NCBI GenBank assembly: GCA_000309945.1
Contig: CM001633.1
Coordinates: 2,204,292 to 2,268,291, forward strand
From: Leptolyngbyaceae cyanobacterium JSC-12
Lineage (GTDB): Bacteria; Cyanobacteriota; Cyanobacteriia; Leptolyngbyales; Leptolyngbyaceae
Length of the DNA stretch: 64,000 nucleotides
Direction of reading: 5' to 3'
The position numbers were made by a program, and so were the translations under genes. Position 1 is the stretch's first letter, and every line of letters begins with the position of its first letter. Positions 35,298-43,582 of the stretch are shown in pieces. Under the pieces are notes generated by a model. It was not told where the DNA came from. It was given only the letters and a program-made list of their open reading frames with translations, and ran no database searches.

Positions 35298-36671
35298 TTA
35301 CTGGCTAAAAGAAAAAACTAGTTTGAGTTCCCAGGTTGTGTCATGTCGAATTAGCTGGATTTCCCGAAGAAATTCGCGGAAGTAGGCACGGCGTTCTGTT
35401 TCTGAAAGATCGAGCCAGAATTGCGGAATGGAAAGGGTTTGAGCAGTTGCCTTTAGATCTACAGGTGGCAATTGGGAGAGTTGATTTTGCAGTTCGGCAA
35501 TCTCAGTGTGCAATTTATAGGCTCGGAGATCGGCGGTTTCCTGATCCAGCACACCGCTGGTAATCAAGGTTGGAAGTTGCTCAAGCAAGGTTTGTCTGTT
35601 TGCGATCGCACCATTGATACCCTGTTTCACCTGAACCATATCGGGCAATTCCACTTCCGAAACCGCACGGGGCAAGTCTTCACAAATGCGGCGAATCACT
35701 TCTTGCAGTACCTCGTCGTAAGCGATAGCCGCACACTTCGGTTGTGCTAGACAATTGCGTGGACGCAGATACAGGTATTCTTGCTTGCGGTTGTGTGGGG
35801 TGACGCGGGCAACTGTCATTGCAGACCGGCATTCACAACACTTGACTAACCCTGCCAGCGATCGCGGCGCACTTGCAGCCCTGGGTGGCAATCGCCGATT
35901 TCGTCGTAGCAGCCGATCTACCTGCGCCGCCTCATCCCGCGAAATGATGGCAGGGTGGGTATCTCGAACCACTTTACCATCCTGATATTCCAGGTCGCCT
36001 CGATAAACCGGATTGATCAACCAACGCTGCCCCGTCGAAGGGGCAATCTTTTTGTTATATCGCTTTGCCAGATAACGAACCGCTCCCCGCACTGAACCAT
36101 ACAACAAGAACTGTTCAAAAAAATCTTTGACAACAGGAGCCGTTGTGCGATCAATTTCGTATCCCGCCTTGCCACGACGATACCCGTATGGAGCTTTTCC
36201 TGGAGGCGGCAGTGCTTTTACCCGATTTTGGGCGTGCCCCTGCCGAATCCGGCGGCTACGCTGATTTTGCTGAAGCGATTGGAGCCGTTGCAGCAGAGTT
36301 GCCTGAGAATTTCCCAAGTTCACCCCTGTCAACTCAGAACTTGTGTCGGAAAGGTCGTCCAATGTGGCGATTGCAACTCCCAACGCCTCCAACTCCACTA
36401 GGCGATCGCGCACCTCCTGCACCGAATCTCCCAAATCCTCAAGCTGGCGCACCACAACCAAATCCGCAGGCTCTCTCTCACAGTCTTGCAGCAGTTGCCG
36501 CCACTGGGGACGTTTTTCCACAGAAACCGTTGTCTTCGCTGCTTTGCGTTTTCCTTTTGTTACCCCTGCGGCTAAATCCTGGTAGGTTTGAGCAATCTCT
36601 ACCCCCCACGTTGACGGGTCAGGAGGTTGTTCAAGCAGCAGATCACTGTAAACGTAGGCAAGGATTTTCAA
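35298..36671 (-). CDS. Serine-recombinase-family protein with altered active site
   Basis: The 457-residue protein has the layout of a large serine recombinase: an N-terminal resolvase-like domain (about 1-125), a recombinase domain (about 160-250, APYGYRRGKAGYEID), a zinc-ribbon segment (CCECRSAMTV, then a CLAQPKC-type pair, about 275-320) and a C-terminal coiled coil. In active members a DRxxR pair lies in an LDRLGRS-type motif; here the same place reads LEDLGDS (77-83), so both arginines are gone. The likely catalytic Ser position is in YSDLLLEQ (8-15) but is uncertain. The start is a TTG, chosen because it gives the family N-terminus MKILAYVYSD. A DNA-binding role without strand exchange is possible. 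Confidence 0.75.
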   Translation of the reverse strand: MKILAYVYSDLLLEQPPDPSTWGVEIAQTYQDLAAGVTKGKRKAAKTTVSVEKRPQWRQLLQDCEREPADLVVVRQLEDLGDSVQEVRDRLVELEALGVAIATLDDLSDTSSELTGVNLGNSQATLLQRLQSLQQNQRSRRIRQGHAQNRVKALPPPGKAPYGYRRGKAGYEIDRTTAPVVKDFFEQFLLYGSVRGAVRYLAKRYNKKIAPSTGQRWLINPVYRGDLEYQDGKVVRDTHPAIISRDEAAQVDRLLRRNRRLPPRAASAPRSLAGLVKCCECRSAMTVARVTPHNRKQEYLYLRPRNCLAQPKCAAIAYDEVLQEVIRRICEDLPRAVSEVELPDMVQVKQGINGAIANRQTLLEQLPTLITSGVLDQETADLRAYKLHTEIAELQNQLSQLPPVDLKATAQTLSIPQFWLDLSETERRAYFREFLREIQLIRHDTTWELKLVFSFSQ

Positions 36672-36700: not shown

Positions 36701-39700
36701 TCAGGAGGGCGAGAGAGGTAAGGAGAGTGGAAGAGGATGTACCCGCCCTCCTGCCCGACTCGCTTTTTGCAACTGAGTCAGATCTTGCACTGTCAGGCTG
36801 CTGGATTTAAGACTGGTGACCTGAGTTAGGCAGTCTAGCAGATCTGCCCAATGAACTCCTGCCAAACTGGGGAACATTACATGAGCATCTTTAACCCGCT
36901 CGACAGAGCCTAGCCCTACTGCCCACATACCTGCCCGGATTGCCGCCTCGATACCAGATGCTGCGTCTTCTATTACAACACAATGCTCAGGGGCAATGCC
37001 TAGTTGTCTTGCAGCGTGGAGAAACACATCGGGTGCAGGTTTGGATTGGGTAACACTGTTGCCATCAGCGATCGCATCCATGTAATCCACAATCCCCAAT
37101 CGATGCAGCACCTCGGGGGCATTTTTGCTCGAAGACCCCAGAGCAATTTTGATGCCTGCATCTCGCAATTCGGTCAGCAAATCAGCCACGCCGGGCAACA
37201 GTTGGTCTGGCGTAATTGTGCGAATCAGTTCCAGGTAATACCGATTCTTGCGATCCATCATTTCTTGAAACTGGATGGCTGAAACTGACCGTCCGTTGAG
37301 GATTCGTTGGAGTGATTCTCGCCGGGAAACACCGCGCAAAGATTCATTCATTTCTCGGTTGAAGGGAATTCCCACTTCATCTGCCAGTCGTTGCCAACCC
37401 TGGTAATGAAACTCAGAGGTATCAGTAATCACACCATCTAAGTCAAAGATCACAGCCTGGATGGGCGGAAGTTGGCTGGTGGAGGTTGGTTCAACCACCA
37501 CCGGCGATCGCCAATCAAATTCATAAATCTGCCCTTTCCACATCAGGTTAAATGCTAGCCGAGTCCAACCATTGGGTAAAGTTGGTGCTGCGACCGGACC
37601 ATTCGCTGTAAGGTGCACGCCACCAAACCCAAACACCACTGCCTGCCACACTCCACCCGCTGAAGCCGCATGAATTCCTTCTGCTGCATTGCCTCGCACA
37701 TCTGCTAGATCTACCAACGCTGATCGCATGAAATGCTCATATGCCAGATTTGGTTCACCCAATTCGCACGCTAGAACTGCATGAACCGCTGGACTGAGAG
37801 ACGATCCATAGGTGTGATCAGTGCGTGGATTATAATAATCCCAATTGGTTTGCAGAATCTGGCGATTGCGCAGCGCTTCAGCCAGGGCTGATTCAGGCGT
37901 CTCAACTGAAATGCGATCCGCAAAGGCTCCTCGCCGCAGCAAATATAGCAACATCAGGACATCTGCCTGCTTTAAAACTTGCCGTCGATTAGCCCCCTCA
38001 ATTCCCAGAATGGCTTGCATAGAGCGTAAGCGTGGCTCATACGCTGCCAGATTCACATCCTCCAGCGCAAAAAAGTCTTCAAACTGCTCAATTAAGCCAG
38101 TGTCAGGGTCTTGCGGAATCCATAGCCGATGTATAACCGTTGCCCAATGCTGCAATCGACTCTCAGATAGATCCAGCGATCGCTGCAAATCCGCAGCCGT
38201 TTGAGGATAGTAAATTTCCAACCAATCCCACAGTTTCAGCGCCGTCTCCAGATGCCACTGCACCATTGCATTGGTGAATGCGTTGTTATTCACCCGCTCA
38301 TGATATTCATCCGGTCCAATCACATCACAAATCTCGTAGTACTCGCGAGCTTCGTTCCATTCCACTCGACTGCCCCAGAACACAGCCGTATCCAAAATTA
38401 TTTCTGCCCCGTAGCGACACATCCACGCATCATCGCCTGTTGCCTGCCAATACTGCCAGACAGCATAAGCAACATCTGTACTGATGTGCAGTTCAATCTC
38501 ACCACACCAAATACGAACCAGGGATTTGGGATCATGGGCATCTGGCACCCAGTTAGGCGTGACTTCATCCCCAGTATCCGCACTTTCCCACACATACATC
38601 GCCCCTTCGTAGCCAGCTTGCAGTGCTTTGCGGCGGGCACCTGGCAACATGTGATACCGATAGGTGAGCAGATTTCGCGCCAAGTGGGGCTGAGTATAAA
38701 TTAAGAAAGGCAAAACAAAGATTTCAGTATCCCAGAAAATGTGCCCCCGGTAGGCAAAGCCAGACAGTGCTTTGGCGGGAATGCTAACGCGATCGCTGTG
38801 GCGTGGCGCGGCTGACAGCAGTTGAAACAGGTTATATCGCACTGCCAACTGAGCCGTACTGTCTCCCTCAATTACAACATCGCTGATTCGCCAGACCTCT
38901 GCCCAGGCAGCTTCGTGTTCGGCTCGTAGATTAAGATAGTCTGGCAAGGCTACTAGAGTTTGAGTGGCAGCCTGTACCGCATTTTCAGTATCACGAGAGG
39001 TAAATATAGCAACTATCTTATCAGCCGTGACTGTTTGCCCTGGTTGTAGTGTAAATCGAGCAATCACTGCAGCATGACCATGAAATGCCAATGTGTCGGT
39101 ATGGCAATTGGTGTCCGAAATTTCTAACTGGGCAGCGATCGCCAGATTAATCTGAGACTGGCGACTCTGCAAATGTAGACAAATTGTATTATCCTGTCCT
39201 ATTTGCTCCACCTGTTGCCAGTGCATCAACCCTTCATTGTCTGGGAAACCATTTAAGCCCGCATGAATTTCAACCACTCCGGCAAAATTAATCGAACGAA
39301 TTTGACACCGAACGGCTGCAACATGCTGTTTCGCCAAACTCACAAACCGTTCAAACCCTAGCTCGATAACGTGCCCCGCAGGACTCCGCCATTGCACTAA
39401 CCGACTCAAGATTCCTCGACGAAGATTTAACCACCGTTTGTAATTCAGAATCTCGCCCTGATCCAGCCGAAATCGCTCCCATTTGATACCAGCGTCTGCC
39501 CCCGTCTGGATACCAATTTGGAGAGTCAGTGACGCCCAATCGGGACAATTGGCTAATTCTGTCACAACTACAGGTGCAGCATCATAAACGCCACTGATTA
39601 AAGTCGCTGGACAACTCCTGGGATAGCCTTCCTCAAACGTACCGCGAGTTCCCAAGTAGCCGTTACTAAGCGTAAAAACAGTTTCCTTGTGATGCAGTTG

Positions 39701-39763
39701 AGTTGGATTAAACGTACCTTCTGTGGTTTCAATAACCACCCAGTCAATGTCATTCATGAACAC
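36701..39763 (-). CDS. GH65 glycoside phosphorylase fused to beta-phosphoglucomutase
   Basis: The 1020-residue protein joins a GH65 disaccharide phosphorylase (about 1-760; general acid Glu486 in DVIGPDEYHE) to a HAD-type beta-phosphoglucomutase (about 770-990; FDLDGVITDTSEFH, with the nucleophile Asp and the acid/base Asp in the DxD motif). The pair would split a maltose- or trehalose-type disaccharide with phosphate into glucose and beta-glucose-1-phosphate, then convert the latter to glucose-6-phosphate. The exact disaccharide is not decided by the sequence. The protein ends in a low-complexity tail (GGRVHPLPLSLPLSPS) encoded partly by a 10-bp hairpin, so the last residues may be dispensable. 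It is followed 29 bp later by the recombinase-like gene. Confidence 0.92.
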   Translation of the reverse strand: MFMNDIDWVVIETTEGTFNPTQLHHKETVFTLSNGYLGTRGTFEEGYPRSCPATLISGVYDAAPVVVTELANCPDWASLTLQIGIQTGADAGIKWERFRLDQGEILNYKRWLNLRRGILSRLVQWRSPAGHVIELGFERFVSLAKQHVAAVRCQIRSINFAGVVEIHAGLNGFPDNEGLMHWQQVEQIGQDNTICLHLQSRQSQINLAIAAQLEISDTNCHTDTLAFHGHAAVIARFTLQPGQTVTADKIVAIFTSRDTENAVQAATQTLVALPDYLNLRAEHEAAWAEVWRISDVVIEGDSTAQLAVRYNLFQLLSAAPRHSDRVSIPAKALSGFAYRGHIFWDTEIFVLPFLIYTQPHLARNLLTYRYHMLPGARRKALQAGYEGAMYVWESADTGDEVTPNWVPDAHDPKSLVRIWCGEIELHISTDVAYAVWQYWQATGDDAWMCRYGAEIILDTAVFWGSRVEWNEAREYYEICDVIGPDEYHERVNNNAFTNAMVQWHLETALKLWDWLEIYYPQTAADLQRSLDLSESRLQHWATVIHRLWIPQDPDTGLIEQFEDFFALEDVNLAAYEPRLRSMQAILGIEGANRRQVLKQADVLMLLYLLRRGAFADRISVETPESALAEALRNRQILQTNWDYYNPRTDHTYGSSLSPAVHAVLACELGEPNLAYEHFMRSALVDLADVRGNAAEGIHAASAGGVWQAVVFGFGGVHLTANGPVAAPTLPNGWTRLAFNLMWKGQIYEFDWRSPVVVEPTSTSQLPPIQAVIFDLDGVITDTSEFHYQGWQRLADEVGIPFNREMNESLRGVSRRESLQRILNGRSVSAIQFQEMMDRKNRYYLELIRTITPDQLLPGVADLLTELRDAGIKIALGSSSKNAPEVLHRLGIVDYMDAIADGNSVTQSKPAPDVFLHAARQLGIAPEHCVVIEDAASGIEAAIRAGMWAVGLGSVERVKDAHVMFPSLAGVHWADLLDCLTQVTSLKSSSLTVQDLTQLQKASRAGGRVHPLPLSLPLSPS
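36712..36753 (-). other. Perfect 10-bp hairpin at the end of the GH65 gene
   Basis: CAGGAGGGCG (36712-36721) and CGCCCTCCTG (36744-36753) pair exactly around a 22-nt loop inside the last codons of the gene. There is no T-run. It could be a terminator-like or mRNA-stabilising structure. Confidence 0.55.
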
Positions 39764-39911: not shown

Positions 39912-39951
39912 TGATTAAAAGCTGATCAAAGTGATTAAAAGCTGATCAAAG
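39912..39951. repeat. Perfect 20-bp tandem repeat upstream of the DUF4168 gene
   Basis: TGATTAAAAGCTGATCAAAG occurs at 39912-39931 and 39932-39951. A CAGCTGATTAAAAGC-like half precedes it. It lies about 80-120 bp before the start at 40034, so it may contain a duplicated regulator site or be a neutral duplication. Confidence 0.9.
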
Positions 39952-40556: not shown

Positions 40557-42404
40557 ATGGTGTTGAAAGCATCGTTACGCATTTGGAATTTGTTTCCGTC
40601 AGCCATGACTGCTTCTCCACCTACTCCTGTCTCTGAACCCAAATATTTTCTCACTCGTCTAATCGCAACCTGTAATGGTTTCCGCCCAATCTGGGTAAGA
40701 GTCTTGCTCTCTTGCCTCAGTTGGGCGATTCCATTAGCGATCGCGCATCCCGGAGAAGCAGCAGAACGAATTTATGTGACGTACAACATTCTGGAACGTT
40801 CAATTTCGATCTCATCGTTAGAAGCTTATGCCAAGCAGGGCATTATCGACGAAGACCTGGCAGCTTACGCTCGCTATGCCAATCCAGATGTCTTAAAAGA
40901 ACTCAGAACTGCTTTGCAGAGCAAAGCAGACTTGAAACTAGTCACTGTTTCCCAGTTTCTCTATTCACCTCAAGGAGAAGCCGCGCTCAAACGTTTGGGG
41001 CAGGTGATTCAGCCAGAATCACGGCAACCTGGGTACAAAGCAATTCGGGCAGCCTTAATTCTCTCAGCAGCTGATCCAGAAGGGCTGACATTGTTAAACT
41101 TCTTGAAAAAGTTCCCTTCAAAAGGCATCCGCATTGACCTGGAGCGGAGTTTGCGGGTAACACGAGAGGCAGAACAATTAATTAACCAAACTAAACGAGC
41201 AACTCAGGTAATTACGGAACTGGCTCAGATGGAAGCAGCAAGCACACCATTAGATCCAGGTCTGGCAGATTTGCGGCAACCTGGTAGCTTCTCTTTTCAG
41301 AAACAATCCATCACATTAACCGATCCAAGTCGCCAAACAATTCCCATCCCCCCTGCTCAGCCCGCGTCTGCAGCTGCGATCGTGCAAGGGCGTACTTACC
41401 CAGTGGATATTTATTTACCGGAATCTGGCAAGGTGCCACTGCCTACCCCCATTCCAGTTGTGGTGATTTCCCATGGCTTAGGGTCTGATCGCAATTCGTT
41501 TGCTTACCTGGCTGAACATCTGGCATCTCATGGGTTTGCTGTCCTAGTTCCTGCACATCCAGGCAGCGATCGCCGCCAGATGGAAGCTCTATTACAGGGC
41601 ATTGCCAGCGAAGTGGCAGAACCTACCGAATTCGTAAACCGTCCGCTCGATATTACTTACTTACTAAATCATCTGGAACGGCAAGCTGCTACGAATCCTG
41701 CCTATCAGCGATTGAACCTGAAGCAAGTAGGCGTGATTGGTCAATCGTTTGGTGGATATACGGCCTTGGCAGTTGCGGGTGCTCCCATCAGCTTTGAACA
41801 ACTTCAAAAAGACTGCCCTAGTGTTGAGAATACATTTAATCTTTCCCTTCTATTGCAATGCCGCGCCCAGGAACTTGCTCAAACACCCCAAGCACGCACA
41901 GATTTCCGAGATCCACGGGTGCAAGCTGTGATTGCTATGAATCCTATAGACAGTGCAGTGATGGGACAAACGAACTTAGGATTAATCACAGTTCCCACCA
42001 TGATCATTGCAGGCAGTGCTGATACAGTAGCGCCCAGCCTGTTCGAACAGGTGCGTCCATTTACCTGGCTGACTGTGAATGACAAATACCTGGTGCAAAT
42101 GGATCCTGGCACTCACTTCTCGGTCATTGGTGGCGGTGAGATTCCAGGTGGGGCTGGTGCATTAGAGATTCCATCAGAAGTTTTGGGACCGAACCCTGTG
42201 ATCGCTCAACGCTATGTGAATGCTCTTGCCCTTGCCTTTTTCCAGACTTACATTGCCAATCGTTCATCTTTCCGCTCCTACCTTAATGCTGCCTACGCCG
42301 AATCCATCTCTGACCCTGCTCTAAGCCTACAATTAGTTCGCACCCTCACCCCCGAGCAACTCACTGCAAATCGGCGAACACCTACCCGCGCCTTCTCGCT
42401 TTAA
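40557..42404 (+). CDS. Alpha/beta hydrolase with N-terminal DUF1400 domain
   Basis: The 615-residue protein has an N-terminal membrane segment, a DUF1400 region (about 68-195; RIYVTYNILERSISISSLE), a linker, and an alpha/beta-hydrolase domain (about 250-580) with VVISHGLGSDRNSF as the oxyanion-side region and the nucleophile elbow GQSFGGYTA. The catalytic His is likely in MDPGTHFSVI. Related cyanobacterial proteins are predicted lipases or esterases exported to the periplasm. ATG 40557 is preceded by GAGGCTGAGAG; ATG 40605 is a second possibility. The gene is 31 bp after the DUF4168 gene and may be co-transcribed with it. Confidence 0.86.
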   Translation: MVLKASLRIWNLFPSAMTASPPTPVSEPKYFLTRLIATCNGFRPIWVRVLLSCLSWAIPLAIAHPGEAAERIYVTYNILERSISISSLEAYAKQGIIDEDLAAYARYANPDVLKELRTALQSKADLKLVTVSQFLYSPQGEAALKRLGQVIQPESRQPGYKAIRAALILSAADPEGLTLLNFLKKFPSKGIRIDLERSLRVTREAEQLINQTKRATQVITELAQMEAASTPLDPGLADLRQPGSFSFQKQSITLTDPSRQTIPIPPAQPASAAAIVQGRTYPVDIYLPESGKVPLPTPIPVVVISHGLGSDRNSFAYLAEHLASHGFAVLVPAHPGSDRRQMEALLQGIASEVAEPTEFVNRPLDITYLLNHLERQAATNPAYQRLNLKQVGVIGQSFGGYTALAVAGAPISFEQLQKDCPSVENTFNLSLLLQCRAQELAQTPQARTDFRDPRVQAVIAMNPIDSAVMGQTNLGLITVPTMIIAGSADTVAPSLFEQVRPFTWLTVNDKYLVQMDPGTHFSVIGGGEIPGGAGALEIPSEVLGPNPVIAQRYVNALALAFFQTYIANRSSFRSYLNAAYAESISDPALSLQLVRTLTPEQLTANRRTPTRAFSL

Positions 42405-42544
42405 GCTCTCGTTTTTTGAACATTTGCGGATGGGCTTTGCTGAAGTTGCATGACATCTGTCATGGCTTTTTCGTTGTTACAGGAAAACTTTTCACCAAGT
42501 TTGAAGCATTTAACAACGCCCCCTTATGGAAAGGATCTGCATCT

Positions 42545-43582
42545 ATGAAACGTCTAGTCGTTTGTTGTGATGGTACTTGGAATCGTTTAGGTCGTTATCC
42601 AACGAATGTTGTAAAAATCGCTCAAGCGGTTAAACCATTTGCCAGGGATGGGAAGGCACAAGTCGTGTATTATCAGCAAGGCTTAGGCACGAAATGGTAC
42701 GATCGCGTACCTGGCGGCGCATTCGGTTGGGGAATTGATTACAACATTCAAAACGCTTACCAGTTCCTGTGCTTCAACTACGAACCAGGAGATGAAGTGT
42801 ATCTTTTTGGATTTAGCCGTGGGGCTTACACTGCTCGCAGCCTTGCCGGAATGATTTATTGCTCCGGGTTGCTGACACGCCAACACATTGATAAAGTACC
42901 ACACGCCTACGACCTCTATCGCGATCGCGACATCACACCCGATGCCATTCAAGCAAAGAACTTCCGCTCCCAATATGGCATTCGCTACAACGAATCAGAC
43001 CAAATTCCGATCACCCTTCTGGGCTGCTGGGATACAGTCGGTTCTTTAGGCATTCCTGACTTATTTCCATTCCTACCAGTGGCTGATTTGGTAAATGCCA
43101 AATATCGGTTTCACAATACCCGATTGAATCGCATGATTCAAAATGCGATTCATGCTGTTGCGATTGATGAACGCCGGAAAGTCTTCAATGTAACACCCAT
43201 GCAGCAAAGCGCTAGCAATCCTAATCAAACTCTCCGCCAGGTCTGGTTTCCAGGAGGGCATGGCTGCGTTGGTGGCGGTACTGAGCAACATTGCAAATTA
43301 TCAGACGCGGCTCTGAAATGGATGATAGATGAAGTTGCTCAACTAGGTCTCAAGCTGGAATTTGATATGACTCGCATTCGAGGTGAACTGGTCTACGACC
43401 CATTAATTCCCTTTAATGCGTCTCCTGGTTTCTTCGGATTAGCTGGCTTGCACGATCGCGTCATTCCCCGAAAAGACCCTCACAACACATTGCATGATAG
43501 TGTCAAAATCCGTTGGCGCAGCCTTCCCGACTACCGTCCAGTCAGCCTTTTGCCATTTAGAGATCAACTCAATTCACAGTAA
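42545..43582 (+). CDS. DUF2235 (Tle1-like) predicted lipase/hydrolase
   Basis: The protein, 345 residues from ATG 42545, opens with MKRLVVCCDGTWN, the conserved start of DUF2235. The serine nucleophile elbow is GFSRGAYTARS (about 89-99); DUF2235 includes type VI secretion phospholipase effectors, but many copies, including cyanobacterial ones, are not linked to a secretion system. AAAGGA lies 9 nt before ATG 42545, so this start is preferred over a longer frame from 42416 whose extra residues look unconserved. Confidence 0.85.
   Translation: MKRLVVCCDGTWNRLGRYPTNVVKIAQAVKPFARDGKAQVVYYQQGLGTKWYDRVPGGAFGWGIDYNIQNAYQFLCFNYEPGDEVYLFGFSRGAYTARSLAGMIYCSGLLTRQHIDKVPHAYDLYRDRDITPDAIQAKNFRSQYGIRYNESDQIPITLLGCWDTVGSLGIPDLFPFLPVADLVNAKYRFHNTRLNRMIQNAIHAVAIDERRKVFNVTPMQQSASNPNQTLRQVWFPGGHGCVGGGTEQHCKLSDAALKWMIDEVAQLGLKLEFDMTRIRGELVYDPLIPFNASPGFFGLAGLHDRVIPRKDPHNTLHDSVKIRWRSLPDYRPVSLLPFRDQLNSQ

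What the first reader, a model, noticed from the sequence alone, without database searches (positions are those of the whole stretch)
35298..36671. Serine-recombinase-like protein whose active-site arginines are replaced
The place of the catalytic DRxxR-type motif reads LEDLGDS, so both arginines needed for strand exchange are absent. The recombinase and zinc-ribbon domains are otherwise well kept and the gene is a full-length open frame. It sits among housekeeping genes with no element boundaries or integrase partner, so it may be a vertically inherited DNA-binding protein.
Basis: partly seen in the sequence, partly recalled or inferred. Interest (0 to 1): 0.5.

Follow-up and report, generated by a model that had tools for sequence, protein, structure and literature searches.

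The report
Recombinase-derived, catalytically dead cyanobacterial protein
Most sampled cyanobacteria outside one small-genome group carry a single copy of a protein built like a DNA-cutting recombinase whose cutting residues have been replaced while the part expected to grip DNA is strongly conserved, so it has probably become a DNA-binding housekeeping protein of unknown target.

Summary
The 457-aa frame (35298-36671, -) is a full large serine recombinase (LSR) by fold, but not only the two DRxxR arginines are gone: on gamma-delta resolvase numbering R8 is Tyr, S10 Asp, R68 Asp and R71 Asp, while D36 and R45 stay. Of 149 distinct orthologues, 147 lack all four of R8, S10, R68 and R71; 29 of 29 XisF-type/canonical comparison LSRs keep R8, S10 and R68. 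The gene is single copy in 118 of 129 sampled Cyanobacteriia genomes outside one small-genome family, in 27 of 28 families; 0 of 57 genomes of that family and 0 of 200 outside the class have it. Its tree follows host families (24 label changes, minimum 23). It is under purifying selection (median dN/dS 0.107; recombinase domain 0.035). A VOC (glyoxalase-fold) gene sits just upstream on the same strand in 54 of 99 genomes holding both. Best reading: a domesticated, catalytically dead LSR kept as a sequence-specific DNA-binding protein. Catalytic-residue loss, descent and constraint are shown; DNA binding and regulation are inferred; the target is unknown.

The parts
35298..36671 (-). Full gene: catalytically dead large serine recombinase homologue, 457 aa, TTG start (stop codon 35298-35300)
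   Evidence: orthologues begin at the same M-K-I-x-A-Y
36312..36671 (-). N-terminal resolvase-like domain (residues 1-120), active site replaced
   Evidence: fold match to gamma-delta resolvase 2gm5_C Z 10.7, 112 residues, 3.2 A; catalytic columns
36642..36656 (-). residues 6-10, YVYSD, in place of gamma-delta Y6-A-R8-V-S10: R8 to Tyr, S10 to Asp
   Evidence: (resolvase letters)
36423..36443 (-). residues 77-83, LEDLGDS, in place of LDRLGRD: D67 to Glu, R68 to Asp, R71 to Asp
36207..36311 (-). helix E and basic linker (residues 121-155), basic at positions 138, 140, 141, 143, 146 and 150 in most orthologues
   Evidence: helix 123-151 in the model; column counts
35886..36206 (-). recombinase domain (residues 156-262), the most conserved part
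   Evidence: Pfam PF07508; mean identity 0.70 in the family vs 0.29 in the XisF/canonical set; dN/dS 0.035
35652..35885 (-). zinc-ribbon domain (residues 263-340) with Cys 278, 281, 307, 313
   Evidence: Pfam PF13408; Cys counts
35472..35651 (-). coiled-coil region (residues 341-400)
   Evidence: two long helices in the model; full-length match to LSR-DNA complexes
35301..35471 (-). C-terminal part (residues 401-457), conserved FWxDLSexERRxxFREF
36701..39763 (-). upstream gene on the same strand, about 30 bp gap: GH65 phosphorylase fused to a HAD hydrolase; possible operon partner in this genus only
   Evidence: Pfam; same order in L031

Best explanation
It is a domesticated large serine recombinase. 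An ancestor close to XisF-type recombinases lost strand-exchange chemistry once, before the sampled cyanobacterial families split, and the protein has since been inherited with the chromosome as a single copy. It most likely works as a dimer that binds one particular DNA sequence through helix E, the recombinase domain and the zinc ribbon, with the former catalytic domain kept as a dimerisation or partner-docking module whose active site is now acidic and should not hold the scissile phosphate. I think it most likely acts as a transcription or chromosome-organising factor. The VOC protein encoded just upstream in many genomes could be a small-molecule-binding or enzymatic partner. Shown: fold, loss of catalytic residues, single copy, vertical descent, purifying selection, VOC linkage. 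Inferred: DNA binding, dimerisation, conserved target, regulation, VOC partnership.
For: Catalytic residues lost in 147 of 149 orthologues but kept in the XisF-type and canonical LSRs compared (R8, S10 and R68 in 29 of 29; R71 in 25 of 29). The dead proteins form one side of a branch (78 rows against 17 XisF-like/canonical rows, SH-aLRT 98). Single copy in 118 of 118 genomes, one of them split in two pieces; host-family labels need 24 changes where 23 is the least. Constraint has moved: mean pairwise identity, dead family vs XisF/canonical set, is 0.43/0.39 in the N-terminal domain but 0.70/0.29 in the recombinase domain, 0.54/0.26 in the zinc ribbon and 0.63/0.23 at the C end (the two sets differ in overall depth). 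dN/dS medians over 35 independent pairs: whole 0.107, residues 1-155 0.137, recombinase domain 0.035, rest 0.102. Model pLDDT 87 with full-length matches to LSR-DNA complexes. Basic helix-E end kept: H146 146/149, R150 148/149. VOC gene upstream on the same strand in 54 of 99 genomes that hold both, gap 50 bp or less in 28 of the 54.
Against: No DNA-binding site was found: upstream regions gave no shared word or dyad beyond the HIP1 background. No binding, knockout or expression data. VOC is not adjacent in 45 of the 99 genomes with both and not found in 19 of 118 genomes with the dead LSR, so the partnership is not obligatory. Eleven of 129 genomes outside family f2 lack the gene, so it is not universally required. 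A few copies are broken: split in G117 and in G010, G011, G037, and the N-terminal part is missing in G069; some of these may be assembly errors.
Confidence: 0.6

Rival explanations
1. It still recombines DNA by an altered active site (for example Ser9 as nucleophile or an Asp-based mechanism).
For: R45 and D36 are kept in 148 and 149 of 149; position 9 is Ser in 53 of 87.
Against: Position 9 is not Ser in 34 of 87; R8, R68 and R71 are replaced, mostly by Tyr and acids; in this genome no other serine recombinase is found and no element surrounds the gene.
Confidence: 0.03
2. It is a subunit or modulator of an active XisF-type recombinase (hetero-oligomer or dominant-negative regulator).
For: Nearest curated family is XisF (NF041201, 135 bits).
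Against: XisF-type proteins at E<=1e-60 occur in 19 of 386 genomes; 103 of 118 genomes with the dead protein lack one, and 4 of the 19 lack the dead protein. This genome has no other Resolvase-domain hit.
Confidence: 0.04
3. It binds DNA widely as a structural, nucleoid-associated protein rather than regulating particular genes.
For: One conserved protein without a conserved operon or upstream motif; absent from small-genome lineages.
Against: Recombinase and zinc-ribbon domains of LSRs read sequence (recalled for characterised integrases); no abundance data here.
Confidence: 0.2
4. It has lost DNA binding too and works as a protein-protein or zinc scaffold, perhaps with the VOC protein.
For: VOC linkage; the N-terminal domain is still kept (dN/dS 0.137).
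Against: The domains that face DNA in LSRs are the most conserved part and basic helix-E residues are kept.
Confidence: 0.1
5. A decaying remnant of an LSR (pseudogene in the making).
For: Catalytic residues lost; a few broken copies.
Against: dN/dS 0.107 over 35 pairs; open frame in nearly all of 118 genomes.
Confidence: 0.02

Closest known systems
XisF, fdxN-element excision recombinase (NCBIfam NF041201)
   Same: Best curated sequence match; same domain order; same phylum
   Different: 135 bits against a cut-off of 375; active site replaced; not in an element; single vertical copy. XisF excises a developmental element (PMC4874684, passages read)
Large serine integrases (4kis LSR-DNA complex, 9dxd series, Bxb1 9iu2, phiC31 9rah)
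   Same: Fold of all domains: 4kis_B Z 16.7, 278 residues, 5.0 A; 9dxd_A Foldseek E 7.7e-20
   Different: No catalytic serine or arginines; no attachment site or phage
Gamma-delta resolvase / Gin (small serine recombinases)
   Same: N-terminal domain fold, 2gm5_C Z 10.7 over 112 residues; D36 and R45 kept
   Different: R8, S10, R68 and R71 replaced
IS607-family TnpA (serine transposase with a chemically inactive dimer state)
   Same: Serine-recombinase fold whose dimer is chemically inactive (PMC6188088, search listing only)
   Different: TnpA works as a transposase; here the catalytic residues themselves are gone

Membership tests
Large serine recombinase (active site-specific recombinase) | resolvase-like N-terminal domain | tested here: met
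   Pfam PF00239 40.5 bits, residues 51-150; fold Z 10.7 to 2gm5_C
Large serine recombinase (active site-specific recombinase) | recombinase domain and zinc ribbon with four Cys | tested here: met
   PF07508, PF13408; Cys in 147-149 of 149
Large serine recombinase (active site-specific recombinase) | catalytic Ser and Arg8/68/71 | tested here: not met
   absent in the window protein; all four absent in 147 of 149 orthologues
Large serine recombinase (active site-specific recombinase) | carried by a phage, plasmid or excisable element | tested here: not met
   vertical tree; none confirmed in viral contigs; only distant LSRs in plasmids and phages
Large serine recombinase (active site-specific recombinase) | strand exchange activity | not testable with these tools
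   needs biochemistry
XisF equivalog (NF041201) | score above curated cut-off 375 | tested here: not met
   135.2 bits for the window, 141.3 for L060
XisF equivalog (NF041201) | lies in the fdxN or another interruption element | tested here: not met
   no element ends at the window; usual neighbour is a VOC gene
XisF equivalog (NF041201) | XisH/XisI partners | not tested
   not searched
Pseudogene of an LSR | relaxed constraint, broken frames | tested here: not met
   dN/dS 0.107 over 35 pairs; few broken copies
Sequence-specific DNA-binding regulator | binds a defined DNA site | tested here: inconclusive
   no shared upstream motif; constraint pattern fits

The most novel reading that the evidence does not exclude
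A class-wide cyanobacterial DNA-binding factor made from a large serine recombinase: active site turned acidic, target specificity frozen across nearly all host families, so that one conserved DNA site (not yet found) is read in most cyanobacteria, with a VOC-fold protein as its co-inherited ligand-sensing partner.
Probability: 0.3. Interest if true: 0.8.

Novelty: new variant of a known kind. Interest (0 to 1): 0.6.

Why it matters
Serine recombinases are known as mobile-DNA enzymes. A near-core chromosomal copy that has lost its chemistry, and conserves its DNA-reading half more strongly than its catalytic half, would be a clear case of an integrase domesticated into a housekeeping DNA-binding protein at the scale of a bacterial class. 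A Resolvase-domain hit is reported in the named Synechococcus elongatus control genome (not checked to be this orthologue), so common lab strains probably carry it and the function could be tested directly.

Tried and rejected
HIP1 reader. The dead protein is missing where the highly iterated palindrome GCGATCGC is rare (family f2; three reduced g78 genomes), so I asked whether it reads HIP1. Among 129 genomes outside f2: HIP1-rich 112 with and 7 without the gene, HIP1-poor 6 with and 4 without (cut at 100 per Mb, my choice). The HIP1-poor holders score low against the family model, but f5 keeps 42-43 of 44 conserved recombinase-domain columns without HIP1, HIP1-rich f23 has no gene, and identity to the window protein hardly differs between HIP1-poor G131 (50%) and its congeners (50-52%). 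A window AAA protein used as control is not faster in G131, G069 or G200 but is diverged in f5 and f16; the second control, an amidase, has many paralogues and is hard to read. For the idea: G131 does lose 6-7 of 44 recombinase-domain columns that its congeners keep. I judge the link unproven and confounded by lineage and genome reduction.

Autoregulatory site: words of 7-10 bases and dyads in upstream regions of non-redundant loci (54 upstream of the gene, 49 upstream of VOC, 35 between the two) gave nothing clear beyond HIP1, against 20 random-segment sets. Promoter of the window's possible GH65 operon: about 120 bp are conserved with L031, but the 20-bp tandem repeat at 39912-39951 is not seen in L031.

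XisF accessory, active recombinase and pseudogene: rejected as given under rivals. Defence system: no PADLOC match. Literature: searches found no description of this family; the held library is open-licence PMC only, and the XisF-XisH-XisI model paper was not held.

Rows dropped: 11 short or broken loci and all identical proteins before the 149 count; L174 was set apart as canonical. The adjacency count (97 of 173 loci) holds duplicates of some genomes and short flanks, so I used. Copy numbers rest on at most 4 best candidates per genome being scored.

Full report
What is there. The frame 35298-36671 on the minus strand is open and 457 aa long, with a TTG start. Orthologues start at the same place (M-K-I-x-A-Y). 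Pfam reads Resolvase, Recombinase and Zn_ribbon_recom, with the Resolvase match covering only residues 51-150. An AlphaFold2 model from 59 aligned orthologues has mean pLDDT 87.2. It matches complete LSR-DNA complexes: 9dxd_A at Foldseek E 7.7e-20, 4kis_B at Z 16.7 over 278 residues with rmsd 5.0; the N-terminal domain matches gamma-delta resolvase 2gm5_C at Z 10.7 over 112 residues with rmsd 3.2. Whole-chain rmsd values are large, as expected if domains are placed differently.

The active site. Aligned with gamma-delta resolvase, Gin, XisF-like and other LSRs, R8 is Tyr, S10 is Asp, D67 is Glu, R68 is Asp and R71 is Asp; D36 and R45 stay (the resolvase letters come, the residue roles are recalled). 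Across 149 distinct orthologues: R8 in 0, S10 in 1, R68 in 1, R71 in 0; all four absent in 147. In the comparison set of 29 XisF-like and canonical proteins R8, S10 and R68 are present in all 29 and R71 in 25, so loss of R71 alone is not diagnostic, but the rest is. The replacement is not random: Tyr at 8 in 141, acidic residues at the S10, R68 and R71 places in 119, 141 and 122 of 149.

How widespread and how inherited. With a family profile, 118 of 386 genomes of the phylum hold one copy each (G117 in two pieces) at E<=1e-30. Sorting by the group codes: 118 of 129 Cyanobacteriia genomes outside family f2, in 27 of 28 families; 0 of 57 in f2; 0 of the 200 genomes outside the class. Among closer relatives 47 of 58 genomes match at E<=1e-10; the weak match in G047 and the extra hits looked at in G005 and G021 are canonical LSRs, and G010, G011 and G037 carry the gene in two pieces. 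The 74 loci all carry cyanobacterial record titles. Trees: 78 dead rows against 17 XisF-like/canonical rows are split by one branch with SH-aLRT 98 (a quick tree, with long branches noted). Host-family labels on 93 rows need 24 changes with 23 the least possible, shuffled mean 60.3; NCBI orders on 48 named rows need 15 with 12 the least. That is what vertical descent predicts. No relative was confirmed in viral contigs; phage and plasmid collections gave only distant LSRs.

Selection. Over 35 independent pairs (84-99% identity) median dN/dS is 0.107; residues 1-155 0.137, recombinase domain 0.035, the rest 0.102 (Nei-Gojobori written by me; dS is high in some pairs). Mean identity within the dead family against the XisF/canonical set: N-terminal 0.43/0.39, helix E 0.43/0.31, recombinase domain 0.70/0.29, zinc ribbon 0.54/0.26, coiled coil 0.45/0.22, C end 0.63/0.23. 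In the comparison set the catalytic domain is the best kept part; in the dead family it is among the least kept. LSRs that serve different elements read different sites (recalled); a frozen recombinase domain suggests one shared target. That last step is inference.

Neighbourhood. A VOC-family gene (glyoxalase fold, PF00903) occurs upstream on the same strand in 47 of 75 loci including the window's. By genome: 99 of 386 hold both, 19 the dead LSR only, 5 the VOC only, 263 neither; the two are within 5 kb on the same strand, VOC upstream, in 54 of the 99, with a gap of 50 bp or less in 28. The 263 include f2 and the genomes outside the class, so co-occurrence is inflated by lineage. In the window's genome the VOC gene is about 261 kb away, and the dead LSR lies about 30 bp behind a GH65-HAD gene, an arrangement shared with L031. 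VOC keeps invariant His8, His51, His73 and Glu116, which would fit a metal site (recalled for the superfamily).

Mechanism. The chemistry of serine recombinases needs the serine nucleophile and arginines that hold the phosphate (established, recalled); with these replaced, mostly by acids, cleavage should not occur. What is left is helix E, a basic linker, and two DNA-reading domains. So the likeliest job is binding a specific DNA site. XisF-type recombinases cannot be obligatory partners: only 15 of the 118 genomes with the dead protein hold one at E<=1e-60, and 4 of 19 XisF-type genomes lack the dead protein. In the window's own genome this gene is the only Resolvase-domain hit. I could not find a target site, and the HIP1 idea did not hold up well (see tried and rejected). 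Regulator is my first choice, chromosome organiser the second.

Known or new. The nearest curated family is XisF, at 135 bits against a cut-off of 375. Interruption-element xis genes have been surveyed; that paper notes 44 further xis-like genes without an interrupted gene nearby (PMC4874684, passages), which may include members of this family, but the passages I saw do not discuss lost active sites. Searches found no account of a conserved inactive LSR in cyanobacteria. I file it as a new variant of a known kind: LSR by descent and fold, not an active member.

Noticed in passing
window 39912-39951: Perfect 2 x 20 bp tandem repeat TGATTAAAAGCTGATCAAAG upstream of the GH65-HAD gene; about 120 bp nearer the gene are conserved in L031 but the repeat is not.
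   Followed up: partly
window 42416-43582 (+): Protein with a T6SS Tle1-like phospholipase catalytic domain (PF09994, 294 bits), next to a DUF1400 alpha/beta hydrolase at 40557-42404.
   Followed up: no
L135 (G286) and L152 (G046): The only two of 149 orthologues with one catalytic residue in place (R68 in L135, Ser at the S10 place in L152); possible early states or reversions.
   Followed up: no
G069, G131 (genus g45), G200, f5, f16, g78 species: Genomes outside f2 with almost no HIP1 (20-142 copies), in g45 and g78 beside HIP1-rich congeners (about 3000 copies); in these the dead recombinase is lost, truncated or low-scoring.
   Followed up: partly
L212, L213, L226 (XisF-like): XisF-like proteins with DRIGSS in place of DRxxR, i.e. 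R71 replaced by Ser while R8, S10 and R68 stay.
   Followed up: no
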